Assembly (NCBI GenBank): GCA_000697665.1
Contig: KL197716.1
Span: 1,185,878 to 1,249,877 of the forward strand
Direction of reading: 5' to 3'
Length of the DNA stretch: 64,000 nucleotides
From: Jaapia argillacea MUCL 33604
Taxonomy: Eukaryota > Basidiomycota > Agaricomycetes > Jaapiales > Jaapiaceae
The notes below the pieces were generated by a model. It saw nothing but the letters and a program-made list of their open reading frames with translations. It had not been told where the DNA came from and did no database searches. Shown here in pieces: positions 2,637-57,366 of this stretch. Both the position numbers and the translations under genes were made by a program. Numbering within the stretch: the stretch's first letter is position 1; every line of letters starts with the position of its first letter.

Positions 2637-5600
2637 TTACAACGTGTCCAGAAAAGATTTCAGAGCAGTGACGTCCAACACGACCAACTGGGTATTGTCA
2701 TAGAGCAGGGCGATTCTATCGCCATGGGAAGCCATCAATCGTCGATACTCAGGTTGAATCCAACAAAGTCTTTTCTTGTTGCCAGGCGTCAGGGTGTATA
2801 GCCAGCCATCCTCCAAGGAAAAGAATGGCCAAGAAAGTTTTGCTAGATCCACGCGTACGACGTTCACCGGAACACCATGCAAGGTGTATCCAGTTGCCGA
2901 ACCTCGGCGAGGGGTGTCCCAGAGTTCCACAGTCTCGTCGGCTGAGCTCGCTATGATGCCAGTACCCGTCTGGGAGAATCTGAGAGTGTCACTCAATTGG
3001 TCGCTGTCTCCGGATTCGTAGATGCATTCTGCGGTTGTGACGTTCCATACTTGGACGTTGTTGAACTCGGAAATTGCAACGAGATGTCTGGTGAAGGTGG
3101 CGGAAATAATCTGGATTCGTGGTATTCCCGACCTCGCTTCCATTTTGAACTGATGAGCTGGAGTTTGGGAAACCCCAGACGACTTGCTTGCGCCACAACG
3201 CCATAACGGAACCGTCAGGGCATCGTCTCCTGACACAATATACTCTTCATCCAGGGAGAAAGCAAGACATGTGATGACAGATTGGTTGTAGTATACGTGA
3301 ATTTGTTCTCCTGTGGAAGCATTCCACAACCGGATTGTCCCGTCGCTCGACCCAGATGCCAACTGTGCCGCATCTTGGGAAAAGATCGCTACCTGCACAA
3401 GCCCAGTGTGCCCGGCGAACGTCCCGAGACATTTGCCATTAGTGGACCACATCCGAAGGGTAGTGTCAGCTGACCCAGACAGGATGCGAGTGTTGTCCCA
3501 AGAGAACTGGATGCAAGGGATCCAATCAAGGTGACCCTTCATCCTCCCAATACACACCAATGTAGCCATATTCCAGAGGGATACCGTGCCTGACCGAGAT
3601 CCAGATGCAAACTGAGTGCCATCTGGTGAAAACGCCACTGCATCCACACGATCGGGGGTGGCTTTATCGTTGGGAGGGTGGGATATATCCCATAGCCTCA
3701 GGGATGCGGAGGCTATGGAAGCGACACGACGGTCGTCGGGAGAGAAGACTACGCCATGAACAGGATAAAGTGCGGGGAATGTTTGGAGTGGTGTTTTGGT
3801 GGCTGATTGCCAAATACAAACAGCACCATCAGCGTCTCCAGATACAAGATGATTGCCATCCACAGAGAATGCAACAGACTGGAAGCTTGCCCCAACCGGG
3901 TCGGATCGAAATACGCGGAGAAGACGCCCGTTTGTAACAGCCCATACATTCAAGGTGCCATCTCCTGACCCGGATACGAACTGGGTACCATCAGGAGAAA
4001 AGGCGACGCAAGAGGCGAACCGTTGGAATACTCGCACTTCATTGCCAGTCAAGGTGTCCCAAAGTCGAATGGTATCATCGCCAGCGGTTAGAATCCGAGA
4101 ACCATCTGGAGAAAACACAATAGCACGGACAGTACCAGTGTGTCCGACCAAAGGCTGGATATGTGCTCCGCTGATGGCATCCCAGAGATGAACAACATAC
4201 CCTCGCTCGCTGCTCGAGACGGCGTAAGTGCGAAGGGGTGCGAAAACCAAGGCCGCGATTCCATCACATTGAGGAGGACATTGGCTTATCAGTACCTCTG
4301 CGCCAGAGCGAGCATCCCATAGTCGAGCGGTGCCATCGTTACCGCCTGAAAGGATGTACAGATCATCCGGAGAGAAAATGGCTTTCGTAACGGCCCCTCG
4401 GTGCCCCCGGCACGCCAGGAGGACAGTACCAGTGACAGCATCCCATATTCGAACCTCGCCATTTCGTGCTCCCGAAACGATGTAAGAGCCGTCTGAGGAG
4501 AAGGAGACAGACAGCACGCTATCTGGGAAAGTTAAGGTCTGCAAACGCGGAGATCATCCTGTCTCTGCGTCTTTCCACACTGTGATCGATTGCAAGGAAT
4601 TCTCGGGGTATAATTGTCGAAGGCGGGCCGTCGTGGGGGTGAATGGGAGTGCTGAGGAGTACGTTTGCAGGCAAGAGACACCGATGACGGGGAAGAATTC
4701 AAGGAGAAATCTTTCACAGTCGTAAAGCGTCTCGACTATGTCACGCGCATAATCGATCCGCGACTGGGGGATGAACATAAGAGATCATCGAGAGTGGAAA
4801 TGATGAAAGCGTACTTCGAGAAAACCTCGGGCGTCATGGAGGGCTCGTATTGCACCTGAAAGTGCACCAAGTACGCTGCAAACTTCGATCCAGAAGAGCA
4901 AACGCTTCGTACAGAATTCCCGTAATGAATCCAAAATTGCGACAGAAACGGAGCCTCGCTTGAGATGAGAGGCCCAATGACAGCACGCATACTGCACGTA
5001 GGGAGGAATACGAGTTTGGATGCGCTCCGGAAGGTCGGAGATATCCACATTGTTCTTTCGTGGATCCCTGATGTCGCACATATCTCGCCGAAGCTGAACC
5101 ATGGCAAGCATACATTGCCGAAAGAGGAGAGTATGCTGCATTTGGGGAGCGAGTGTGAATGTATTGTTGGTGCAACGTGAAGGGTCCGTGATGAACTCTG
5201 CGAACGTGGGGTGAATGATCTGGATGGGTCGGTCGTCCGTGTCGGGAACCATGGCGACCGAGTGCAGATGCTTCAGTGTAGCACGAACACTGTGTAAAGG
5301 AACACCCAGCAAGTGCTTGAGGTCGAGTGGAGACAAGGGATCTTGTAAGAGGACAACGGAGCCAAGGACCGCCTTGAGGCGACCTGCCAGCTCCTTGGAA
5401 ATCTGCGGGAAAGCATTGTCCAATACTTGTAGATACAAGCTATCAAGGTGCTGATGAGGAGATGACCCCGATATTCTTGCCGTGTGGAGGAGGCGGTGTA
5501 ACTGATCAACTGGGTCGCTATAATTCTTATCTTCGATAAAGACGACGGTGGTGGCAGCGAAGATGAAGAGGCCCCCAGACATTTGCGTCAGGGCGTTGAT

Positions 5601-7290
5601 ATCGTTCTCGGATGGCCAGGGGTTTTCAATGTCGTATGACCCTCGGATCTCGCCGAGCCGTTGGCAGAAGTAGCGCCTGATATCTGTTTCAACAACGTCC
5701 AGCCCGACGTCGTGTAGACGTAGCTGGTTAGTTACGGGTTGCAATCTGTCGGATGCGAACCCCGTCGTGATATTGTGCTCCGGACGACTAGTGATCAAGA
5801 ATTTCAGGGGAGAGAGTGTTTCGAGGTGCAAGGAGAGAGAGGACAACACGAGTGAGGTCGATTGGTCGTCCTTGCATTCATCCAACGCATCCACCACAAC
5901 TATGCATGGAGGGAAGTCTACCATACGCATAGGCTCCACAATGAGTTCTTCGATCTGCCGAGAGACACTCCCATAGACGACCAACGGATCAACTTTCAGC
6001 GCCTCGGAGACGGCGGCTCTGAATGGAGGATGGTAGATTCCCAGTTGATACGCGATGGTGTTGAACACAAACATTGGGTCGCTGCATTGGGCGTTGTCAC
6101 GGGAGCAGAAGAAGCTTGCCCCAAGATTCCCAGCACCGTGGCACTCCTGAGCCACTGTATAGGCGATGGTTGTCTTCCCGGTTCCCGCCAATCCATTAAT
6201 CCAAAATATAGTAGGTTCAGACTTCACACCTTCGTGGCCACCAGGAGTGTCTCCCATCCATTCGCGAACTTGGGTAAGAACGCCAACCCTTGTACCTTCC
6301 AGGCAAGGTCTTCGCTGCTCTCGATAGTCATAACGGGCAGCGACAGCGCAAAGAGGAATGGAAGCGCCTTTGTCAATATCAGACGGCGTCGATCTGAATT
6401 GAAAGAGAATGGGCTTGGCGCTCACCATCTGATTCGGCGGCCAAACGCAATTGCTGAATGGGGTGAGATGGCGGACCTCGTATACACCAATATGAGGGAA
6501 ACATAGTTGGATATCTCCCCGGATACCGTCTAATTTGTGCTCCACTCGAACCGCGCTCTCCTTTTGAAAACGAGCTTGTTTCTGAGACAGGGTAAGCAAA
6601 GTATCCCGAGGACAACAATTTAAGATCCCACATCAAGCGCAAATTCGATGGCCAGCGATCCCTCAACCTAATGTGCAGATATTAGGAGACGATGAGAGGA
6701 GTGGACGTGAACGTTGACACCAACCAGAAAGCTGTGAATTGCCCATGTTATTGACTGGACGATTCCAGTGATTGCGCCGGCATCGTCATCGCTGCTAATG
6801 AAGCGCATCAAACGCGAATGAGACTTGAGCTTCTGCGACTCCTCGGCGGCTAGGCTCCAAGCTCTAGATGTTGCAATCAATAGGTAGTAGGAAGCTCGTT
6901 GGACGAAGTAGGTGCAGACCGTAAAAGACTTTCGATTCTACTTTTCATGGCATCCGACACAGAACCTCCATGCAAAGCTTGGTTGTTTTGGATCATGGTG
7001 GTCAACCGAGGGAGGTATTCCGAAAGTGTCCTCAGATCATCCACATTCTGAGAGGTTTTCTACCACGTCAACAGGTTAGAGAGAGGCAGGTGCGTGATTG
7101 ACATATGGCATACCTGAAGTTTATTCACCACCAGCGACAATGCGGACAGGCCAGGCTTGAGGCCAGGGACGTTCACAGCATCGGCGACTGATCCAAGGAC
7201 GTCCAGTGATGTCTGTACCAGCTTGACAGTAACCTTTCCCCGACTTCTTTTCTCCTCGCCGCTTTTCCGCGTGCCCTTCAAGCTATCCAT
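2637..7290 (-). CDS. STAND/NLR-like protein: HeLo-like N-terminus, NACHT NTPase, WD40 repeats
   Basis: Signal-transducing NTPase of the fungal NACHT-WD40 class, usually tied to self/non-self recognition or regulated cell death. Exons inferred: 7290-7114, 7059-6920, 6862-6725, 6667-6632, 6581-4815, 4763-4581 and 4538-2637. The first ~130 residues (DAVNVPGLKPGLSALSLVV, then NVDDLRTLSEYLPRL) are helical and resemble the MLKL-NTD/HeLo-like adaptor domain seen in mushroom STAND proteins. The NACHT part has Walker A GLAGTGKTTIA, Walker B CIVVVDALDEC and LKFLITSRPE. A linker ending SALPFTPTTARL precedes about 13-14 WD40 repeats (for example FSPDGSRILTAGDDTIRLWD), enough for two propellers. An in-frame TGA at 4556-4554 falls between linker and propeller; it is removed only if a 42 bp intron (4580-4539) is spliced, otherwise the gene is broken. 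Gene ends with stop at 2637. Confidence 0.85.
4539..4580 (-). other. Putative 42 bp intron (or disabling stop) inside the STAND gene
   Basis: On the minus strand this stretch begins GTGTGG and ends TTTGCAG, is 42 bp and keeps frame, and contains the in-frame TGA at 4556-4554. Without splicing the NACHT and WD40 parts are separate reading frames. The length is at the lower edge of what fungal introns reach, and the donor is weak. Confidence 0.45.
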
Positions 7291-39492: not shown

Positions 39493-40001
39493 ACAATCGA
39501 GCTTGCTTCACACAATCGAGTGAATTTTTGAACAGAGTGGATGTATCTGAACTACATACCTCTCCGAGAGTACCTCTTTCGTTGCACACAGCAAACTTCA
39601 GTGAATACTTCCAACTGATCAACCAAGAGTCTTGGGTATTTACCAGATGTTTACTGGAAGACTATTGGCAGTGAAAGCAGAGGAAGAGTTTGCAGCTTGT
39701 GGCGCCAGGATTCAGATTACAAGTCAGTCGCGTCATGCTTTCTCAGCACTCCACGAAGTTTGACGGATTTATCGGAGGGTCTGATTCCAACGCCACAGCG
39801 GTTGTTTGGTTCGGCGTGCAAAGGCTTCCGTTTTTAACAACTACAAATACTGAAACAGCTACGGTGGCACCCTGATCGTTCAGTGAGACAAGTCCAACTG
39901 AAGCCTACAGAAACAGCCCTTGTCGACGTTCTATAGTTCATTGGTCTTGAGTAGCTTGGTCTCTTCATCTCCGGCTTCAATTCCGGCTTCAATTCTAGCG
40001 T

Positions 40002-40821
40002 CTACAGAATCCGCGGACGTGTGGCTCTAACCTTCATTGAACAGTCAGCATTCCCAAAGCTCCGCGCAGCCTGAGACTCATAAGCTTACCTCTGGCAATT
40101 GTCTGTCTTGCTCTGGCGTGGGCTGAGCATCCTGCTTCTTCCAAGGAACTCCGAATTCACACTCATGCACCACTTCTTTTTCTCGCTTCTCTCGAGCCTC
40201 TGATACAGCTTCTTGGGGTCCTTCGTTGGTAGGCGGTGATGTTAGTAATCCCCCTTCCTTGCTGCTGTCGGGCGAGGTAGTGCCTAATTGAACTTTAGAT
40301 CGTTCAGTACGAAGTTACGCCACTCACTGCTGAGCCGGCGAGCCCGTTCCTCCCTACAGAGGCGCAGATATTGGAGGTGCCTCCGCTTGGCTTCACGCCT
40401 TTCTGCGTCGAGAGCCTTAGCACTAGGCTTTCCAGTGCCAATTTCCACGACCTTCACAGCCGTGGTTATCAACCTAAAGCTCCGCAGAGAGTTACAAGCC
40501 CACCTCTGGCGATTGTCTGTCTTGCCCTACAGTGGGCTGAACATCCTTCTTCTTCAATGGAACTGTCGCTACTTCATTTTCGGAATCCCCACTCTCATCC
40601 ATCACTGCTTTTCCTCGCAAAGAGTCGAGGAGGTTGTCAATGACTATTGAGTCTACGTCCAGAGGTAGAGCCTTAGCTCGACTAGCAGTATGAGGCTTGT
40701 CAGTATGGATAACTACGCCCTTCACAGGCATCCTGATTTTGGCAACATCAACTGGTATTCTGGACGCCAACTCGATCTTGGTGCCGTCGGGACTGGGTGA
40801 CCTCGAGCTCGAGCGCGACAT
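40002..40821 (-). CDS. Tandem family member A, function unknown
   Basis: Unrecognised. The start is MSRSSSRSPSPDGTKIELAS at 40821, followed by the family core IPVDVAKIRMPVKGVVI. Exon 1 ends QPTVGQDRQSPE at a GTGGGC donor. Exon 2 (VVEIGTGKPSAKALDAERRE to ERARRLS) is rich in Arg/Glu and helical. Exon 3 (TTSPDSSKEGGLLTSPP) ends QPTPEQDRQLPE, so the QPT..QDRQ-PE block is present twice, unlike in copies B and C. A last short exon gives VRATRPRIL and stop at 40002. No signal peptide or membrane segment. Mostly charged and Ser-rich, likely disordered with short helices. A TATAGATAAG element lies about 90 bp upstream. Confidence 0.6.
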
Positions 40822-41467
40822 AGTGTTGGCCTTAATTGGTGGAAGCGGTGAATTATGAAGTCGATCTGCAAGGAATCATCTACGACACCGTGCACAACGC
40901 CAATTGTCCTTATCTATAATTGTGCTGGGGCTGTGCGTTCAATCGACTACGAGCCATGCCGAGTTGTCCGATGCACTGCACTGCTGTTGAACTACTGGAC
41001 ATGAGATTCGGAAGCAGTAGCAATCATCGCTGGATTGAACTTACTTCTTCAGGGGTATTGGGGAGGCATCTGTATCCCTCTTCGATGAGCCGATTTCGGG
41101 GACCACGGTGAGTCTCGGTGTGATCTGATATGAATCGCTCTCAGGAAACCACCCAGCACTACAGACCACTCGGCACAAAAGCGTAGATCTCAGGAATATT
41201 CCGTCGATTGACGCTCGTTCTGAATCACCTTACCGGATTCCTGAGAGACAGTGAGAACGCACTGCCAGTACAGTATATCTAACGCCACAGTTCCTGTTTG
41301 GTTTAGCGTGCAAAGGCTTCTGTTTTTAACAACTCCAAACAACAAAAGGTGGCGATGGTGCCTCATCCGAGCCTCAGTCCAAATCCTCAACATGGACTGG
41401 GCTCGTCGTTATACTACTTACATCGAAAGTATTTCGTAGGTCGTTGTCCGCATTGTCCTTCGTTTAT

Positions 41468-42190
41468 CTAGCTTGAGTCCCGCTCTCCAGTCATCTCCGG
41501 CTCGGTCTTGGGCCTTGACTCTACAATCTTATGGTCCTAACAGCAGCCAGCAATAGTCAGCAACTCAAGCTCCTCACAAAGAATGATAAGCCGACCTCCG
41601 AGCCCGGCGACTGCTTTTCTTGTTCTACTGTAGGCTGATCATCCTTCTGTTCGACCGGGACTGTCCATGGTTCGCTTTCGGATGACCCACGCTCGTCCAC
41701 CACTTTTCCTTCCTCTTCTTGAGCCTCTGGCACGGCATCACGGAGTCCTTGGTCATCCGGTGCCGATGACGCTCCCTCTCCCTTGCTGTGGCTGGACGAG
41801 ACAGCGCCTAAACACTAGCATTAGGTCGTTCAGTTAAGAACCACCCTACTTACTGCCGCGCTCCCGTTCAGCGAGCAAAGATTGGAAGAAGTTCCGAAGG
41901 ATTTCGTGCTGCGACCTGTTGTCGAGAGGCTTAGCACTAGGCGCCGAGTCGGTATTAGCAACTGCGTACTTGCGAGTCTCTACCCAGGGAGGCAAAGGTT
42001 GGAAGAACTTCTGGAGAACTTCGCGCCGCCGTGGCATTTGCACATTGAGGGGCTTCGCATTCGGTTTCCCAGAGCTGATGACTACGCCCTTGACAGGCAT
42101 CCTGACCTTGGCAACATCAGCTGGTATTCTGGATGCCAACTCGATCTTGGTGCCGTCGGGACTTGGTAACCTCGAACTCGAACGCGACAT
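41468..42190 (-). CDS. Tandem family member B, function unknown
   Basis: Unrecognised. The start is MSRSSSRLPSPDGTKIELAS, then IPADVAKVRMPVKGVVI. Exon 1 carries two related helical blocks, AKPLNVQMPRRREVLQKFFQ and AKPLDNRSQHEILRNFFQSL, each of the form xKPLxx...(H)EILxxFFxxL. A GTAAGT...TTTAG intron leads in frame to SAVSSSHSKGEG and QKDDQPTVEQEKQSPGSE; a third exon (DHKIVESRPKTEPEMTGE) ends RDSS with stop at 41468. About 205 residues, hydrophilic, no targeting signal seen. It is 85-90% identical by eye to copy C over long stretches. Confidence 0.65.
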
Positions 42191-42810
42191 AGTGTTGGCC
42201 TCAATTGGTGGAAGCGGTGAATGATGAAGTCGATCTGCAAGGAATCACCTTCGACACCGTACACAACGCCAATTCTTATCTATAATTGTGCTGGGGCTGT
42301 GCATTTAATTGACTGAGCTGTGCTCCCTCGTACCCGAATTGTGCGATGCACTGCGCTGCTGTTGAACTTCTGGACATTTGTCACATTAGATTAGGAAGCG
42401 GTAGCAATCTTCACTGGATCAAAAGGGGTATCGGGGATGCATCACTATCCCTCTTCAATGTGCGATTTCAGGCTCGCACATTGCTGATGGGGATCAAGGT
42501 GAGGCTGGGTGTCATCTGTCATGAATCGCTCCCAGCGAACCACCTATTACTATAGACCATTCGGCACGTGATTTACGCTCCCACCTGGCCGGTTTGCAGA
42601 AAGACAATTTGTCGTGGCTGTTTGACGGATTTGTCGGAGGGACTGAACCCGACGACTCAGTGGCTATTTGGTTCAGCGTGCAAAGACTTCCGTTTCTAAC
42701 AACTCCAAACAACAAAAGTGGTGGTAGTGTCGCATCTGAGTCCAGATCCCTTGTCGCTATACTACATCGAAAGTATTTCGTTGGCCATTGTCTGCGTTGT
42801 CCTTCGTTGT

Positions 42811-43548
42811 CTAGCTTGAGTCCTGCTCTTTACTCATCTCCGGCTCGGTCTTGGAGTCCTCTGGTGACTCTACTGCGAGGTGGTTCTGCCAGCAGCCAAC
42901 AACAGTCAGCAACTCAAGCTACTCACAAAGAATTATAAGCCAACCTCCGAGCCTGGCGATTGCTTGTCTTGTCCTACTGTGGGCTGATCATCCTTCTGTT
43001 CAAATGGGACTGTCGATGGTTCGCTTTCGGATGCCGTACGCTCATCCACCACTTTTCCTTCCTCTCCTTGAGCCTCTGGCACTGGCACAGCATCACGGAG
43101 TCCTTGGTTATCGGGTGCCGATGATGTTCCCTCTTCTTTGCTGTCGCTGGGTGAGACAGCACCTAACCACTGACATTAGATCGTTCAGTTAATAATCACC
43201 CTACTCACTACCGCGCTCCCGTTCAGCGAGCAAAGATTCGAAGAATTTCTGAAGGATTTCGTGCTGCGACTTGTTGTCGAGGCGCTTAGCACTAGGCGCC
43301 GGCTCAGTGTTGGCGACTGCGACCCTGGGGAGTTGTGCACGGGGGAATTGTGCCCTGGGGAGCAAAGGTTGGAAGAAGCTCTGGAGAACTTCGTGCTGTC
43401 GCTCCGGTCTTTGTACATCGAGGGGCTTCGCCTTAGGTTTTCCGGAATTGATGACTACTCCCTTGACAGGCATCCTGACCTTGGCAACATCGACAGGTAT
43501 TCTCGACGCTAACTCCAGCTTGGGACTTGGTGATCTCGAGCGCGACAT
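42811..43548 (-). CDS. Tandem family member C, function unknown
   Basis: Unrecognised. The start is MSRSRSPSPKLELASR, then IPVDVAKVRMPVKGVVI. As in copy B, exon 1 holds two KPLD...HE(V/I)LQ.FF..LL blocks, separated here by a short PRAQFPRAQLPR repeat, and ends AERERG. Exon 2 is SAVSPSDSKEEGTSSAPDNQ onward with VDERTASESEPSTVPFEQKD, ending QPTVGQDKQSPGSE. Exon 3 gives NHLAVESPEDSKTEPEMSKE and ends QDSS, stop at 42811. A GTAGATAAGG element stands about 85 bp upstream of the ATG at the place of the TATAGATAAG of A and B. Confidence 0.65.
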
Positions 43549-44396
43549 GATGTTATCTGCCTTCAGCTGGCGGGAGTGGTGTAGGACGAAGTCGATCTGC
43601 AGGGAATCGCCCATGCATCGTGCATTGTCCTTATCTACAGTTGTGGAGTGGCTGTGCGTCCAATTGACGGCATTTCATCGACTTCGAGCTGTACAGTACT
43701 CTCGTACTAAGCGGAATTGTCCGCTGCACTGCTGTTCAGTGTTATGTTCGACTTTGGGTCAACTCGCCCACTTCTAGAAAAGGGGAGCGTTACAAATCAT
43801 TCTAAGCTGGTGTTCGGATCCTTTTGGGGATGAAAGAGTACGAATCGGTATCCATCATTATTTCGGTGGAATTTCAGGCCGCCATTTTCTGTCGAATTCT
43901 TGATCAGGTAAGTTCAGGTGTTGTCTGGTTTGAATGCCACTTAGGAACCATCCAGCACATCGGGTTGGCACGACGCAAAAAATCGTCTTCCACAGGGCCT
44001 CAGATATGTTCCGACATTTAGCCCTCGTTCATTCATTGGGGTTTTCCTTAGAGCCTATCGATTCCGGTTTGCTCGCTCCTCCCTCAGCTTTCGTAACTTT
44101 TCCCTCTTACACTCAATTTCTGCGATCTGTACGGAGCACATGACCAACGATCAGCCCTTGGAGTGATAGAGAAGAGGAAACACGGACCCTCCTAGCCCTA
44201 CGGTGAGATGCATCGTCATTTAGCGAATTTCCCTCTCGCAGTTCTGGGAACTGAACACGCTCCCCTTGTTCCAGCGAGCGTGAGGTCGCCGAAGATTTGC
44301 TTGCCGATCGCATCAATGCCTGCTCTGTTCCCTCTACGTCCTGGTCCTGATATTCGTTGGTCGTGGCTAATCGCAGATTCAATCAACGAGTCTAAA

Positions 44397-44824
44397 TCAA
44401 GAACGGTGCCAAAACGAGGACGAACAATCAGCTGCGGACGCAACCTGCTGAGGCAGACTTGGCGGGATATAATTGGTCTCCGGACTGTCACTGGTAGGAG
44501 GATCTGCATCTTGCCTGCTTTCATGTTGATCATTGTCGGCTGCCACTGTCTCTAGTAGAAGCAGTGCCTGGTTATCGTGCACAAACTTTGTGACGGTGAA
44601 CAGCGCCACTCACCTCCAGAAGCAGACTCGCCAGTGCGTGAACATAAATGGTATTCGCGATCCATCCTCCATCTCCGACCCCGTTCGAACTCTGGTTGAG
44701 CGTTCGGCTTAGTTTTGATGACTGTGCCCTTGACTGGTTGCCTGACTTTGGCAACGTCGACAGGTATCTTGGACGTCGACTCCAACCTTGTATAGTCGGG
44801 GCTCGATGATCGCGAGCGGGACAT
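44397..44824 (-). CDS. Divergent, possibly broken family member D
   Basis: The start MSRSRSSSPDYTRLEST continues SKIPVDVAKVRQPVKGTVI, so it belongs to the same family, but the KPLD/FF blocks are replaced by NAQPEFERGRRWRMDREYH. Exon 1 ends ESASG at a GTGAGT donor. The next acceptor gives TASTRDSGSRQ and a stop in the expected phase, whereas another frame of the same stretch stays open longer (ALLLLETVAADNDQHESRQD to 44397). Either a different splice is used or the copy is truncated by a frameshift. End coordinate is therefore uncertain. Confidence 0.35.
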
Positions 44825-45024
44825 CCCTTGTCTTGGAATTGTCTTAGTGGTGGTCGACGAGAGAGATGTGGTCGATTCGCGGTGGAGAATCGATGATCTC
44901 GTCAGAGCTGTACATACACCGCCAACCCACGCCCCAGCACTGCTCTTGGCGTCTACAGGATATATATGGACTTGATACGTAGCTGTGAGTGTCGTTTTTC
45001 TGTGGCCGGTCTATTGGTGGTTGA

Positions 45025-45396
45025 TGTCTCATAGCTTAGGAACGCAAATCATCGGTGATTCTCCTTGGTCTCTGGGGAGATCATTCTATGCATGATCCCC
45101 GGCGGCACAGAAGCTCGATGATGTCGAGGAAGCACTTGAGAAGGACTCGTGCGGGATGACGAGAATTCTCGGTTTAGGCGTGTGCCTCTTCATATGTATT
45201 CGATTCAACTACTTTCAAGTTCGGAGTTGTTCTCACCGATCTTCGAGTGCTTCCCAATGATTCAATCCCAGGAGAACATCAATGACGCTTCCAGATCGCC
45301 GCGAGAGCGAGATCATGAGAGGAGAAGATGAAGCCTTGGGAACCGATTTTCTTGTTCCTGGGACCTCGACAAAATGACAGCTCTTCCCCTCGTTAG
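45025..45396. repeat. Direct repeat, left copy
   Basis: About 370 bp matching 45545-45922 at an offset of roughly 523 bp. Shared stretches include CCCGGCGGCAC, CGAGTGCTTCCC, ATTCAATCCCAGGAGAACAT and TTCTTGTTCCTGGGACCTCG. Ends were judged by eye. Confidence 0.8.
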
Positions 45397-46075
45397 CATT
45401 TCAATCTTATTGCTTTTCTCGAGGGTGAGAGTTGGATACCTTCGGAACCGACATTCTACAGGACCTCGCCAAGATAATAGCTCTTCCCTCTTTCGCATTT
45501 CAACTGTGAGTGCCCTTCATTTTTCTGCCTCCATAGGTCGTTAATGTCTCACAGCTTCGCAACCGCGCATATTCGGTCATTCTCCTTGGCTCTGGGGAAA
45601 TCACTATTTGTGTGATTCCCGGCGGCACGGAAGTGCCAGGATATCGAGGAAGCGCTTGGGAAGGACTCGAGCGGGATGACGAGACTTCGTCTAGGTTCCG
45701 CGTGTGTCTCTTCATATCCATTCGATCCAACTACTTTCTTCGGAATTGTTCTCACCGACCTTCGAGTGCTTCCCGATGATTCAATCCCAGGAGAACATCA
45801 ATGATGCTTCCGTAGTCGAGAGAGTGAGATCATGAGAGGGTAAGATGAAGCCTTCGGAACCGACTTTCTTGTTCCTGGGACCTCGCCAAAATGACAGCTC
45901 TTCCCTCGTGAGCATTTCAACGTTCTTGGCGCTTGCTCGAGAGTGAGAGTTGGATGCCTTCGGAACCAACTTTTTACAAGATTCTTGTTCCTGGGACTTC
46001 GCCAAAATGACAGCGTCTCCCTCGTTCGCATTTCGACCTTCTTGGTGTTTTTCTCGAGAGGGGGAGTAGGATCGT
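45338..46075. repeat. Short interspersed copies of a ~100 bp module
   Basis: The module CTTGTTCCTGGGACCTCGCC with CAAAATGACAGC, TCTTCCCTCGT and GCATTTCAAC, followed by CTCGAGAGTGAGAGTTGGAT and GCCTTCGGAACCGAC, occurs in whole or part at about 45348, 45460, 45866 and 45983. This is the tail of the larger direct repeat. No coding gene is supported in 44825-46342. Confidence 0.65.
45545..45922. repeat. Direct repeat, right copy
   Basis: Partner of 45025-45396. It runs on into further partial copies of its own end (GTTCCTGGGAC..CGCCAAAATGACAGC at 45870 and again at 45987). Confidence 0.8.
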
Positions 46076-56296: not shown

Positions 56297-56620
56297 CCTT
56301 GAGCGCAGATCACGCTATTACTGATAATTTCACCATACATTTCTTTCCTTCCTGTACTGCGCGCCCGCGGGCTTCAGATCTCACTACTCTTCGATCTCGC
56401 TCGTTGATTACTACCGATTCAATAGAAGAGTAAAGGCACCTCAAGATTCAATTCTCAGCCCTTGAGCGCAGATCATGCTATTACCGATAAGTTCGCCATA
56501 CATTTCTTTCCTTCCTGTGCTGCGTGCCCGCGGGCTTCAGATCTCACTACTCTTCGATCTCGCTCGTTGATTACTACCGATTCAGTAAAGAGTAAAGGCG
56601 CCTAACGATTCAATTCTCAG
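56297..56620. repeat. Two tandem copies of a ~163 bp unit
   Basis: Copies begin CTTGAGCGCAGATCACGCTA near 56298 and CTTGAGCGCAGATCATGCTA at 56461, and share TACATTTCTTTCCTTCCTGT, GCGGGCTTCAGATCTCACTA and TCGCTCGTTGATTACTACCG. They differ at a few positions only, pointing to a recent duplication. Confidence 0.85.
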
Positions 56621-57366
56621 CCCTCCGCGTACAGCATTGAACGGTCTCAGACTTCAGCCTGGCATCCATTCTCTCGACGTTCTCCAGCACTAGACGCTCT
56701 ACAGCACCACTTCTTTTTCAGCTGCGGAAGAGTTCTTCACTTTTGTAGAGCATGCACGCAGCCTCGCGATATCCGCTGTTATTCATGCCCCACTAAATTA
56801 ACCTCCAGATCGGTGGTCTATCATGGATCATAACGCAACAGCGCGTGTGACTGGAGCCTGGTACGTGTCTTGAACTCTCTCAGAGTTACTCGGTGAAGAC
56901 CTGTTCAGGTGCTTACCTGCGTCTCTCCGATACGAGTTCTTGGGCGCGATGACTTCAAATGGGCGATCGTCGCAGATATTCTTAGGACTTTGTGCTCAAA
57001 TGGGCTTAGTATGGGCGCGCTCTTTGAGTTCGTGGAGTGAGCATCTGATAGAACGTGTCGGAAACGCATATGACCGACCTCCGTTGGAGAGAGATCGTAT
57101 CAAAATCTGCATCGAAGGGGCTAGGAACATTCAACAACATGCGTAATTGGCAAGGCTCTGTCATGAGGTCCAGACTGACAATCTTTGCTCGTGTAGCTAT
57201 CGGCACACCGACAGCTACGACTCGAAAGGCCTTAAATACCCGTCCGCTTTGCGTACCGCTCAGACTCAACCCTCATTCACACTCGGACTCAACTTTCATT
57301 CACAGCCATGCCCGCCGTTCGTACTACTTGTTGTTTTCATGGACTCTTCCTTGTTCATTCACTCCA

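What the first reader, a model, noticed from the sequence alone, without database searches (positions are those of the whole stretch)
39740..44824. Tandem array of a small, unrecognised gene family
Four minus-strand genes at ~1.3 kb spacing share a start MSRS(S/R)S..SP and a near-invariant core I-P-(V/A)-D-V-A-K-(V/I)-R-x-P-V-K-G-(V/T)-V-I, then diverge. In A-C the flanks are as similar as the coding part, so duplication was of whole units and is recent; copy D is older. The core is more constrained than its surroundings and survives in the most divergent copy, which argues for selection on a binding motif rather than passive duplication. Proteins are hydrophilic with no signal peptide. I know no family with this core. 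A multi-copy, fast-changing intracellular gene set next to repeats fits recognition or conflict roles, but this is inference.
Basis: partly seen in the sequence, partly recalled or inferred. Interest (0 to 1): 0.8.

Follow-up and report, generated by a model that had tools for sequence, protein, structure and literature searches.

The report
Tandem fungal genes borrowing dynein's hook
A wood-decay fungus carries a row of four small genes that turned up in no other species searched, and two of their floppy proteins contain a short helix closely resembling the piece that the cargo motor dynein uses to grip its adaptors, so they may act as decoys or regulators of that motor.

Summary
The array is real: four minus-strand genes of Jaapia argillacea MUCL 33604 (annotated "hypothetical"), found nowhere else in this 43.7 Mb genome or in a 5.8-billion-protein database at the sensitivity used. 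They are coding: dN/dS of the N-terminus with core is 0.08-0.21 between copies, and all six B-C exon indels are multiples of three. "Recent whole-unit duplication" is wrong in detail. A and C are old duplicates; B is a hybrid (A-like 5' half, C-like 3' half, switch inside the core), as unequal crossing-over produces; A holds the remnant of a further unit.

The main new result lies outside the core. B and C carry two copies of a module whose significant non-array match in the genome is the C-terminal helix of the fungus's own dynein light intermediate chain (LIC; E 6e-4 with B; the reciprocal search returns only that gene, B and C). That helix grips Hook and other adaptors. Four contact residues are kept in 4 of 4 modules; AlphaFold makes module 2 the one confident helix of otherwise disordered proteins. 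A and D show no such match, and the module alone found no LIC entry in Pfam or PDB.

Best explanation: disordered proteins, two of which display a dynein-adaptor-binding helix and compete for adaptors. Binding, expression and the core's partner are untested.

The parts
40002..40821 (-). Gene A (JAAARDRAFT_68781): exons 40821-40504, 40451-40328, 40283-40090, 40031-40002; core plus tail, then remnant of a second unit
   Evidence: Public protein P0001; first two introns proposed before seeing it, last exon taken from it
41468..42190 (-). Gene B (JAAARDRAFT_68782): exons 42190-41854, 41807-41596, 41536-41468; hybrid of A-type 5' half and C-type 3' half; two LIC-like modules
   Evidence: exon 3 taken from the public model
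42811..43548 (-). Gene C (JAAARDRAFT_34018): exons 43548-43209, 43162-42945, 42885-42811; two LIC-like modules
   Evidence: the public model starts at an internal Met, an in-frame MSRS start lies upstream; exon 3 taken from the public model
44397..44824 (-). Gene D (JAAARDRAFT_34021): oldest copy, N-terminus and core only; exon structure unsure
   Evidence: my splice model and the public one differ
40708..40758 (-). Core of A, IPVDVAKIRMPVKGVVI
42077..42127 (-). Core of B, IPADVAKVRMPVKGVVI; holds the switch from A-like to C-like sequence (between 42119 and 42107)
43450..43500 (-). Core of C, IPVDVAKVRMPVKGVVI
44717..44767 (-). Core of D, IPVDVAKVRQPVKGTVI
41864..41911 (-). B module 2, LIC Helix-1-like QHEILRNFFQSLLAER
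   Evidence: Only non-array genome match at E<=10 is DLIC, E 6.2e-4; 11 of 13 residues shared; AlphaFold helix at P0002 residues 73-94
43219..43266 (-). C module 2, LIC Helix-1-like QHEILQKFFESLLAER
   Evidence: DLIC match E 0.0042; 10 of 13 residues; AlphaFold helix at P0003 residues 67-87
43360..43398 (-). C module 1, QHEVLQSFFQPLL (Pro inside)
   Evidence: 11 of 13 residues shared with Jaapia DLIC; short predicted helix at P0003 residues 24-33
41993..42025 (-). B module 1, REVLQKFFQPL (Pro inside)
   Evidence: 8 of 13 residues shared with Jaapia DLIC over the 13-codon frame; not predicted helical
40352..40459 (-). Relic of a further unit inside A: degenerate core end plus module start (VVEIGTGKPSAKALD...)
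   Evidence: Protein match to the C core/module junction, 0 of 1000 shuffles; DNA score 39 against a maximum of 38 in 300 shuffles for C, 48 against 36 for B

Best explanation
A lineage-restricted tandem family of small, mostly disordered intracellular proteins. Shown: a conserved N-terminal motif under purifying selection in all four and, in B and C, one good and one weaker copy of a helix sequence matching the adaptor-binding Helix-1 of dynein light intermediate chain (LIC). Inferred: B and C bind dynein activating adaptors, such as the Hook protein encoded in the same genome, and so compete with or modulate dynein's grip on cargo, while the N-terminal core binds a separate partner or sets location. 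The array grew and shuffled by unequal crossing-over, with the switch point of B inside the core.
For: Genome search with C: besides the array, the DLIC gene (E 0.0042) and one place at E 2.1. With B: DLIC alone (6.2e-4). Reciprocal search with the DLIC tail: itself, B (0.0023), C (0.019), nothing else at E<=10. Reversed B: best E 0.32. 0 of 5000 shuffles of B or C reach their score against the DLIC tail; against the human helix 0 of 5000 (B) and 5 of 5000 (C). The gene is DLIC: PF05783 over cut-off at two of three exon matches, its helix best matched by human LIC1 peptides 6b9h_B and 6psd_F. Equivalents of L444, F447, F448, L451 kept in 4 of 4 modules. Module 2 is the one confident AlphaFold helix in both proteins. 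Hook N-terminal domain in the genome, 57.5 bits against cut-off 23.5. Free LIC1 helix blocks dynein-dynactin-Hook3 motility in vitro (PMC5841405, abstract and passages).
Against: The match is short and, because B's 3' half came from C, B and C are one observation. A and D find no DLIC match at E<=10. C module 2 alone finds no LIC chain in the PDB at E<=10, only a designed protein at 2.5, and neither that peptide nor P0002 matches Pfam DLIC. The control search shows PF05783 rings weakly in 8 of 14 control genomes, none over cut-off. Codons give no sign of descent from DLIC. Module 1 has a Pro mid-helix and in B loses the L452 equivalent. Helix 1 alone did not suffice in pull-downs for 5 of 6 adaptors (PMC6336354, passages). 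dN/dS over B-C residues 39-112 is 0.41, looser than the core. No expression or binding data.
Confidence: 0.45

Rival explanations
1. Ordinary lineage-specific orphan family acting through the N-terminal core; the helix in B and C is a chance amphipathic segment or one that binds something other than dynein adaptors.
For: The core is the only feature in all four copies and the tightest; A and D lack the helix; the match is 13-16 residues long.
Against: Unbiased genome-wide and reciprocal matches to DLIC, quiet reversed control, contact residues kept in 4 of 4 modules.
Confidence: 0.37
2. Conflict or selfish gene set: the array acts in competition between nuclei or strains, for instance by steering dynein-driven nuclear movement at mating.
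For: Species-restricted in the searches made, reshuffled by recombination; dynein is required for nuclear migration in the agaricomycete Schizophyllum commune (PMC4540427, abstract).
Against: No positive selection seen; dN/dS below 1 in the comparisons that align well; no population data; the mating biology of Jaapia was not looked up.
Confidence: 0.12
3. Not genes: a repeated non-coding stretch with chance open frames.
For: No transcript data; exon borders of D and of B exon 1 differ between models.
Against: dN/dS 0.08-0.37 in the pairs that align well; 6 of 6 B-C coding indels are multiples of three against 2 of 8 non-coding, Fisher p 0.009; public gene models at all four.
Confidence: 0.03

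Closest known systems
Dynein light intermediate chain C-terminal Helix-1 (LIC1 440-456; Pfam DLIC PF05783)
   Same: Disordered context; helix sequence with L444, F447, F448, L451 equivalents; the Jaapia DLIC helix shares 11 of 13 residues with C module 1 and with B module 2
   Different: B and C have no matched GTPase-like domain and no Pfam DLIC match; two helix modules; N-terminal core absent from the only DLIC match
Dynein activating adaptors (Hook family)
   Same: The proposed binding partners; a Hook N-terminal domain is encoded in the genome
   Different: B and C would sit on the LIC side of the contact; I saw no coiled coil or Hook match in them
Lineage-specific tandem orphan gene families of fungi
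   Same: Found in one species only in the data searched, tandem, unannotated, predicted disordered
   Different: Carries a recognisable motif and a clear unequal-crossover hybrid gene

Membership tests
Dynein light intermediate chain (DLIC) | GTPase-like domain / Pfam DLIC match | tested here: not met
   No DLIC match for exon-1 ORFs of A-D at E<=1 or for P0002 and C module 2 at E<=10
Proteins with a LIC Helix-1-type motif | Amphipathic helix with L444, F447, F448, L451 equivalents | tested here: met
   4 of 4 modules in B and C keep them; L452 in 3 of 4; helix predicted at module 2 of both. Not met in A and D
Proteins with a LIC Helix-1-type motif | Binds Hook, BICD or other adaptors through FF and LL | not testable with these tools
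   Needs a binding assay; no complex prediction was offered
Transposon-encoded protein | Dispersed copies or transposase-like domain | tested here: not met
   Unit DNA and A protein match only this array in the genome; no Pfam transposase
Secreted effector | Signal peptide | tested here: not met
   Charged, Ser-rich N-terminus; highest 19-residue hydropathy 0.78 in any of the four; no dedicated predictor was available

The most novel reading that the evidence does not exclude
A genome-encoded, species-restricted family of free-standing dynein-LIC mimics: small disordered proteins that display the adaptor-binding helix without the motor and so titrate Hook-type adaptors away from dynein, perhaps controlling nuclear migration or endosome traffic, with the conserved core targeting them to a chosen place.
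Probability: 0.3. Interest if true: 0.8.

Novelty: new variant of a known kind. Interest (0 to 1): 0.55.

Why it matters
Cytoplasmic dynein is steered by the adaptors that its LIC helix grips. A natural protein carrying this helix without the motor would be a built-in competitor, something I did not meet in the listings searched. In the agaricomycete Schizophyllum commune dynein is required to move nuclei at mating (PMC4540427, abstract), so such genes could link a private gene family to nuclear traffic. In any case it gives an anonymous orphan array a directly testable molecular prediction.

Tried and rejected
Relatives in other organisms: profile of four models (4 hits at E<=1, all Jaapia, among 6672 candidates), A residues 1-60 (only A and B, among 6 candidates), long-protein search with a concatenated query (none at E<=10 among 7979 scored). 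The search needs shared 5-residue words and similar length, so distant relatives could be missed. PDB with the four-row profile: one weak Hsp70 hit, E 0.71. PDB and Pfam with C module 2 alone: no LIC. Recent capture of the helix from the DLIC gene: rejected, because codons at identical residues match DLIC at about chance level (observed 3, 5, 5, 5; expected 3.3, 4.5, 4.6, 4.0); ancient descent and convergence cannot be told apart. A LIC-like helix in A: 485 of 5000 shuffles match the human helix as well, dropped; the 'A1?' row is out of register and is not used. A stretch near 44120-44055 downstream of D resembles A's second unit weakly (29 of 1000 shuffles), not used. dN/dS of A against B or C beyond the core (0.37 and 0.59) rests on unsure alignment near saturation and is not relied on. 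Repeats 44983-46037 as a mobile element: one place in the genome. My first exon-3 guesses were replaced by the public models. Papers on the species (39 papers, 20 listed) and on orphan genes (6 listed): listings only, nothing on this array seen.
Full report
WHAT IS THERE. The window lies in a 43.7 Mb, 95-contig assembly. Database hits name the four array proteins as Jaapia argillacea MUCL 33604 hypothetical proteins JAAARDRAFT_68781 (A), 68782 (B), 34018 (C) and 34021 (D); the species belongs to the order Jaapiales, Agaricomycetes. The genes run on the minus strand from ATGs at 40821, 42190, 43548 and 44824. I had proposed the first two introns of A and the first intron of B and C before seeing the public models and the public proteins agree; the last exons of A, B and C were taken from the public models. 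The public B model also removes a stretch of exon 1 that is open in the sequence, and the public C model starts at an internal Met although an in-frame MSRS start lies upstream. The neighbours are a SelO gene (PF02696) and a fatty-acid desaturase gene (PF00487).

CODING AND SELECTION. Nei-Gojobori dN/dS for N-terminus plus core is 0.08 (A-C), 0.12 (A-B), 0.14 (B-C), 0.17 (D-C) and 0.21 (D-A, D-B); bootstrap upper bounds run from 0.27 to 0.60. The core alone (20 codons) in D comparisons is 0.23-0.25 with upper bounds of 0.91-0.94. B-C over the whole protein is 0.37 (0.24-0.57), with 0.41 for residues 39-112 and 0.47 for the tail. B-C indels in coding sequence are multiples of three in 6 of 6 cases against 2 of 8 outside, Fisher p 0.009. 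So these are genes kept as proteins, with the N-terminal part tightest.

HOW THE ARRAY GREW. Along the A/B/C alignment, sites uniting A with B dominate before the core and sites uniting B with C after it: 107 AB and 22 BC before the best break, 55 and 255 after; the break lies between B positions 42119 and 42107, inside the core; 0 of 5000 permutations reach this (the permutation ignores dependence between neighbouring sites). A-B distance upstream (0.16) is like B-C distance in the rest of exon 1 (0.20), intron 1 (0.17), exon 2 (0.13) and intron 2 (0.14); exon 3 plus 3' flank is 0.28. A-C in the same regions is 0.38-0.85 and upstream 0.50. Order along the minus strand is D, C, B, A. An unequal crossover between C and A gives exactly a hybrid with A's 5' half and C's 3' half between them; this is inference from the pattern. 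Gene A holds a further relic: after a first copy of the tail a degenerate core end (VVEIGTGKPSAKALD) appears, matching the C core/module junction (0 of 1000 shuffles), and a tail stretch occurs twice in A (40473-40564 and 40053-40150, 78% identical). So the array probably had at least one more unit, now fused into A.

THE HELIX. Exon 1 of B and C carries a repeated module, PxAKxLD..(Q)HE(I/V)L(Q/R)xFFx(S/P)L (module 1 against 2: 0 of 1000 shuffles in C and in B). Searching the whole genome with the C protein gave 10 matches at E<=10: eight in the array, C1:1459087-1459251 at E 0.0042, and one at E 2.1. With B: nine in the array and the same C1 gene at 6.2e-4. With the two modules of C alone: C, B and that gene at 0.020. 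That gene is the dynein light intermediate chain: of three PF05783 exon matches two pass the family cut-off (the family also rings weakly, below cut-off, in 8 of 14 control genomes), its C-terminal ORF matches PF05783 positions 355-429 below the cut-off (16.8 against 19.7 bits), and its helix best matches human LIC1 peptides 6b9h_B (E 0.021) and 6psd_F (0.025) in the PDB, ahead of two designed proteins at 0.07. The reciprocal search with the DLIC tail finds itself, B (0.0023) and C (0.019) and nothing else at E<=10. Reversed B finds nothing below 0.32. A and D find only the array at E<=10. Against the Jaapia DLIC tail 0 of 5000 shuffles of B and of C reach the real score, but 382 of 5000 for A and 4218 for D; against the human helix the counts are 0 (B), 5 (C), 485 (A) and 3458 (D). 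Against the reading: C module 2 alone found no LIC chain in the PDB, and neither it nor P0002 matched Pfam DLIC. C module 1 and B module 2 each share 11 of 13 residues with the Jaapia DLIC helix, C module 2 ten and B module 1 eight.

FUNCTIONAL RESIDUES. In Lee et al. 2018 (PMC5841405; [quoted passage not shown] Celestino et al. 2019 (PMC6336354; passages seen) report that F447A/F448A or L451A/L452A abolished binding to all six adaptors tested in LIC1, and that helix 1 alone did not suffice for 5 of 6. In the array 4 of 4 modules keep the equivalents of L444, F447, F448 and L451; L452 is Pro in B1; position 450 is Pro in both first modules. AlphaFold2 with four-row alignments gives low-confidence models overall (mean pLDDT 55.7 in both, pTM 0.17 and 0.18) with one well-scored helix at module 2 (best ten-residue block 84 in B, 86 in C); module 1 is a short helix in C ending before the Pro, and none in B. 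All four proteins fall on the disordered side of the charge-hydropathy boundary (formula recalled). A Hook N-terminal domain is encoded in the genome; in Aspergillus and Ustilago, Hook proteins HookA and Hok1 link early endosomes to dynein-dynactin (PMC7649786, passages seen).

INTERPRETATION. Shown: gene family, selection, hybrid pattern of B, LIC-Helix-1-like sequence in B and C. Inferred: adaptor binding, competition with dynein, role of the core. Because B's 3' half came from C, the helix is one evolutionary observation, and because A and D lack it, it is an added feature of the B/C type, not the definition of the family. Synonymous codons show no excess sharing with DLIC, so the helix is either old or convergent. 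The strongest objection is the shortness of the match; the strongest reply is that it came from an unbiased genome search, is reciprocal, and falls on the known adaptor-binding motif with the contact residues intact.

NOVELTY. The listings showed no natural free-standing LIC-helix protein; there I saw listings and starts of abstracts (capped lists), plus the passages named above, no whole paper. Only an open-licence library was searched.

Noticed in passing
41915-41968: The public model of gene B (P0002) removes the in-frame stretch YAVANTDSAPSAKPLDNR as an intron that gene C's model keeps as exon; the LIC-like helix is retained either way.
   Followed up: partly
44983-46037: Upstream of D lies a two-copy tandem repeat of about 530 bp (80% identical) with inner repeats of about 110 bp; single place in the genome. 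Origin unexplained.
   Followed up: partly
56297-56624: Two copies of a 163-bp unit, 93% matches, in tandem.
   Followed up: no
2637-6632: Long minus-strand ORFs that read like WD40 repeats and a NACHT-type NTPase (my reading, no family search), a kind of gene often tied to fungal recognition, about 33 kb from the array.
   Followed up: no
44055-44120: Short open stretch EIECKREKLRKLREERANRNR downstream of D, weakly like the second unit of A (29 of 1000 shuffles); may be a further exon of D or a relic.
   Followed up: partly
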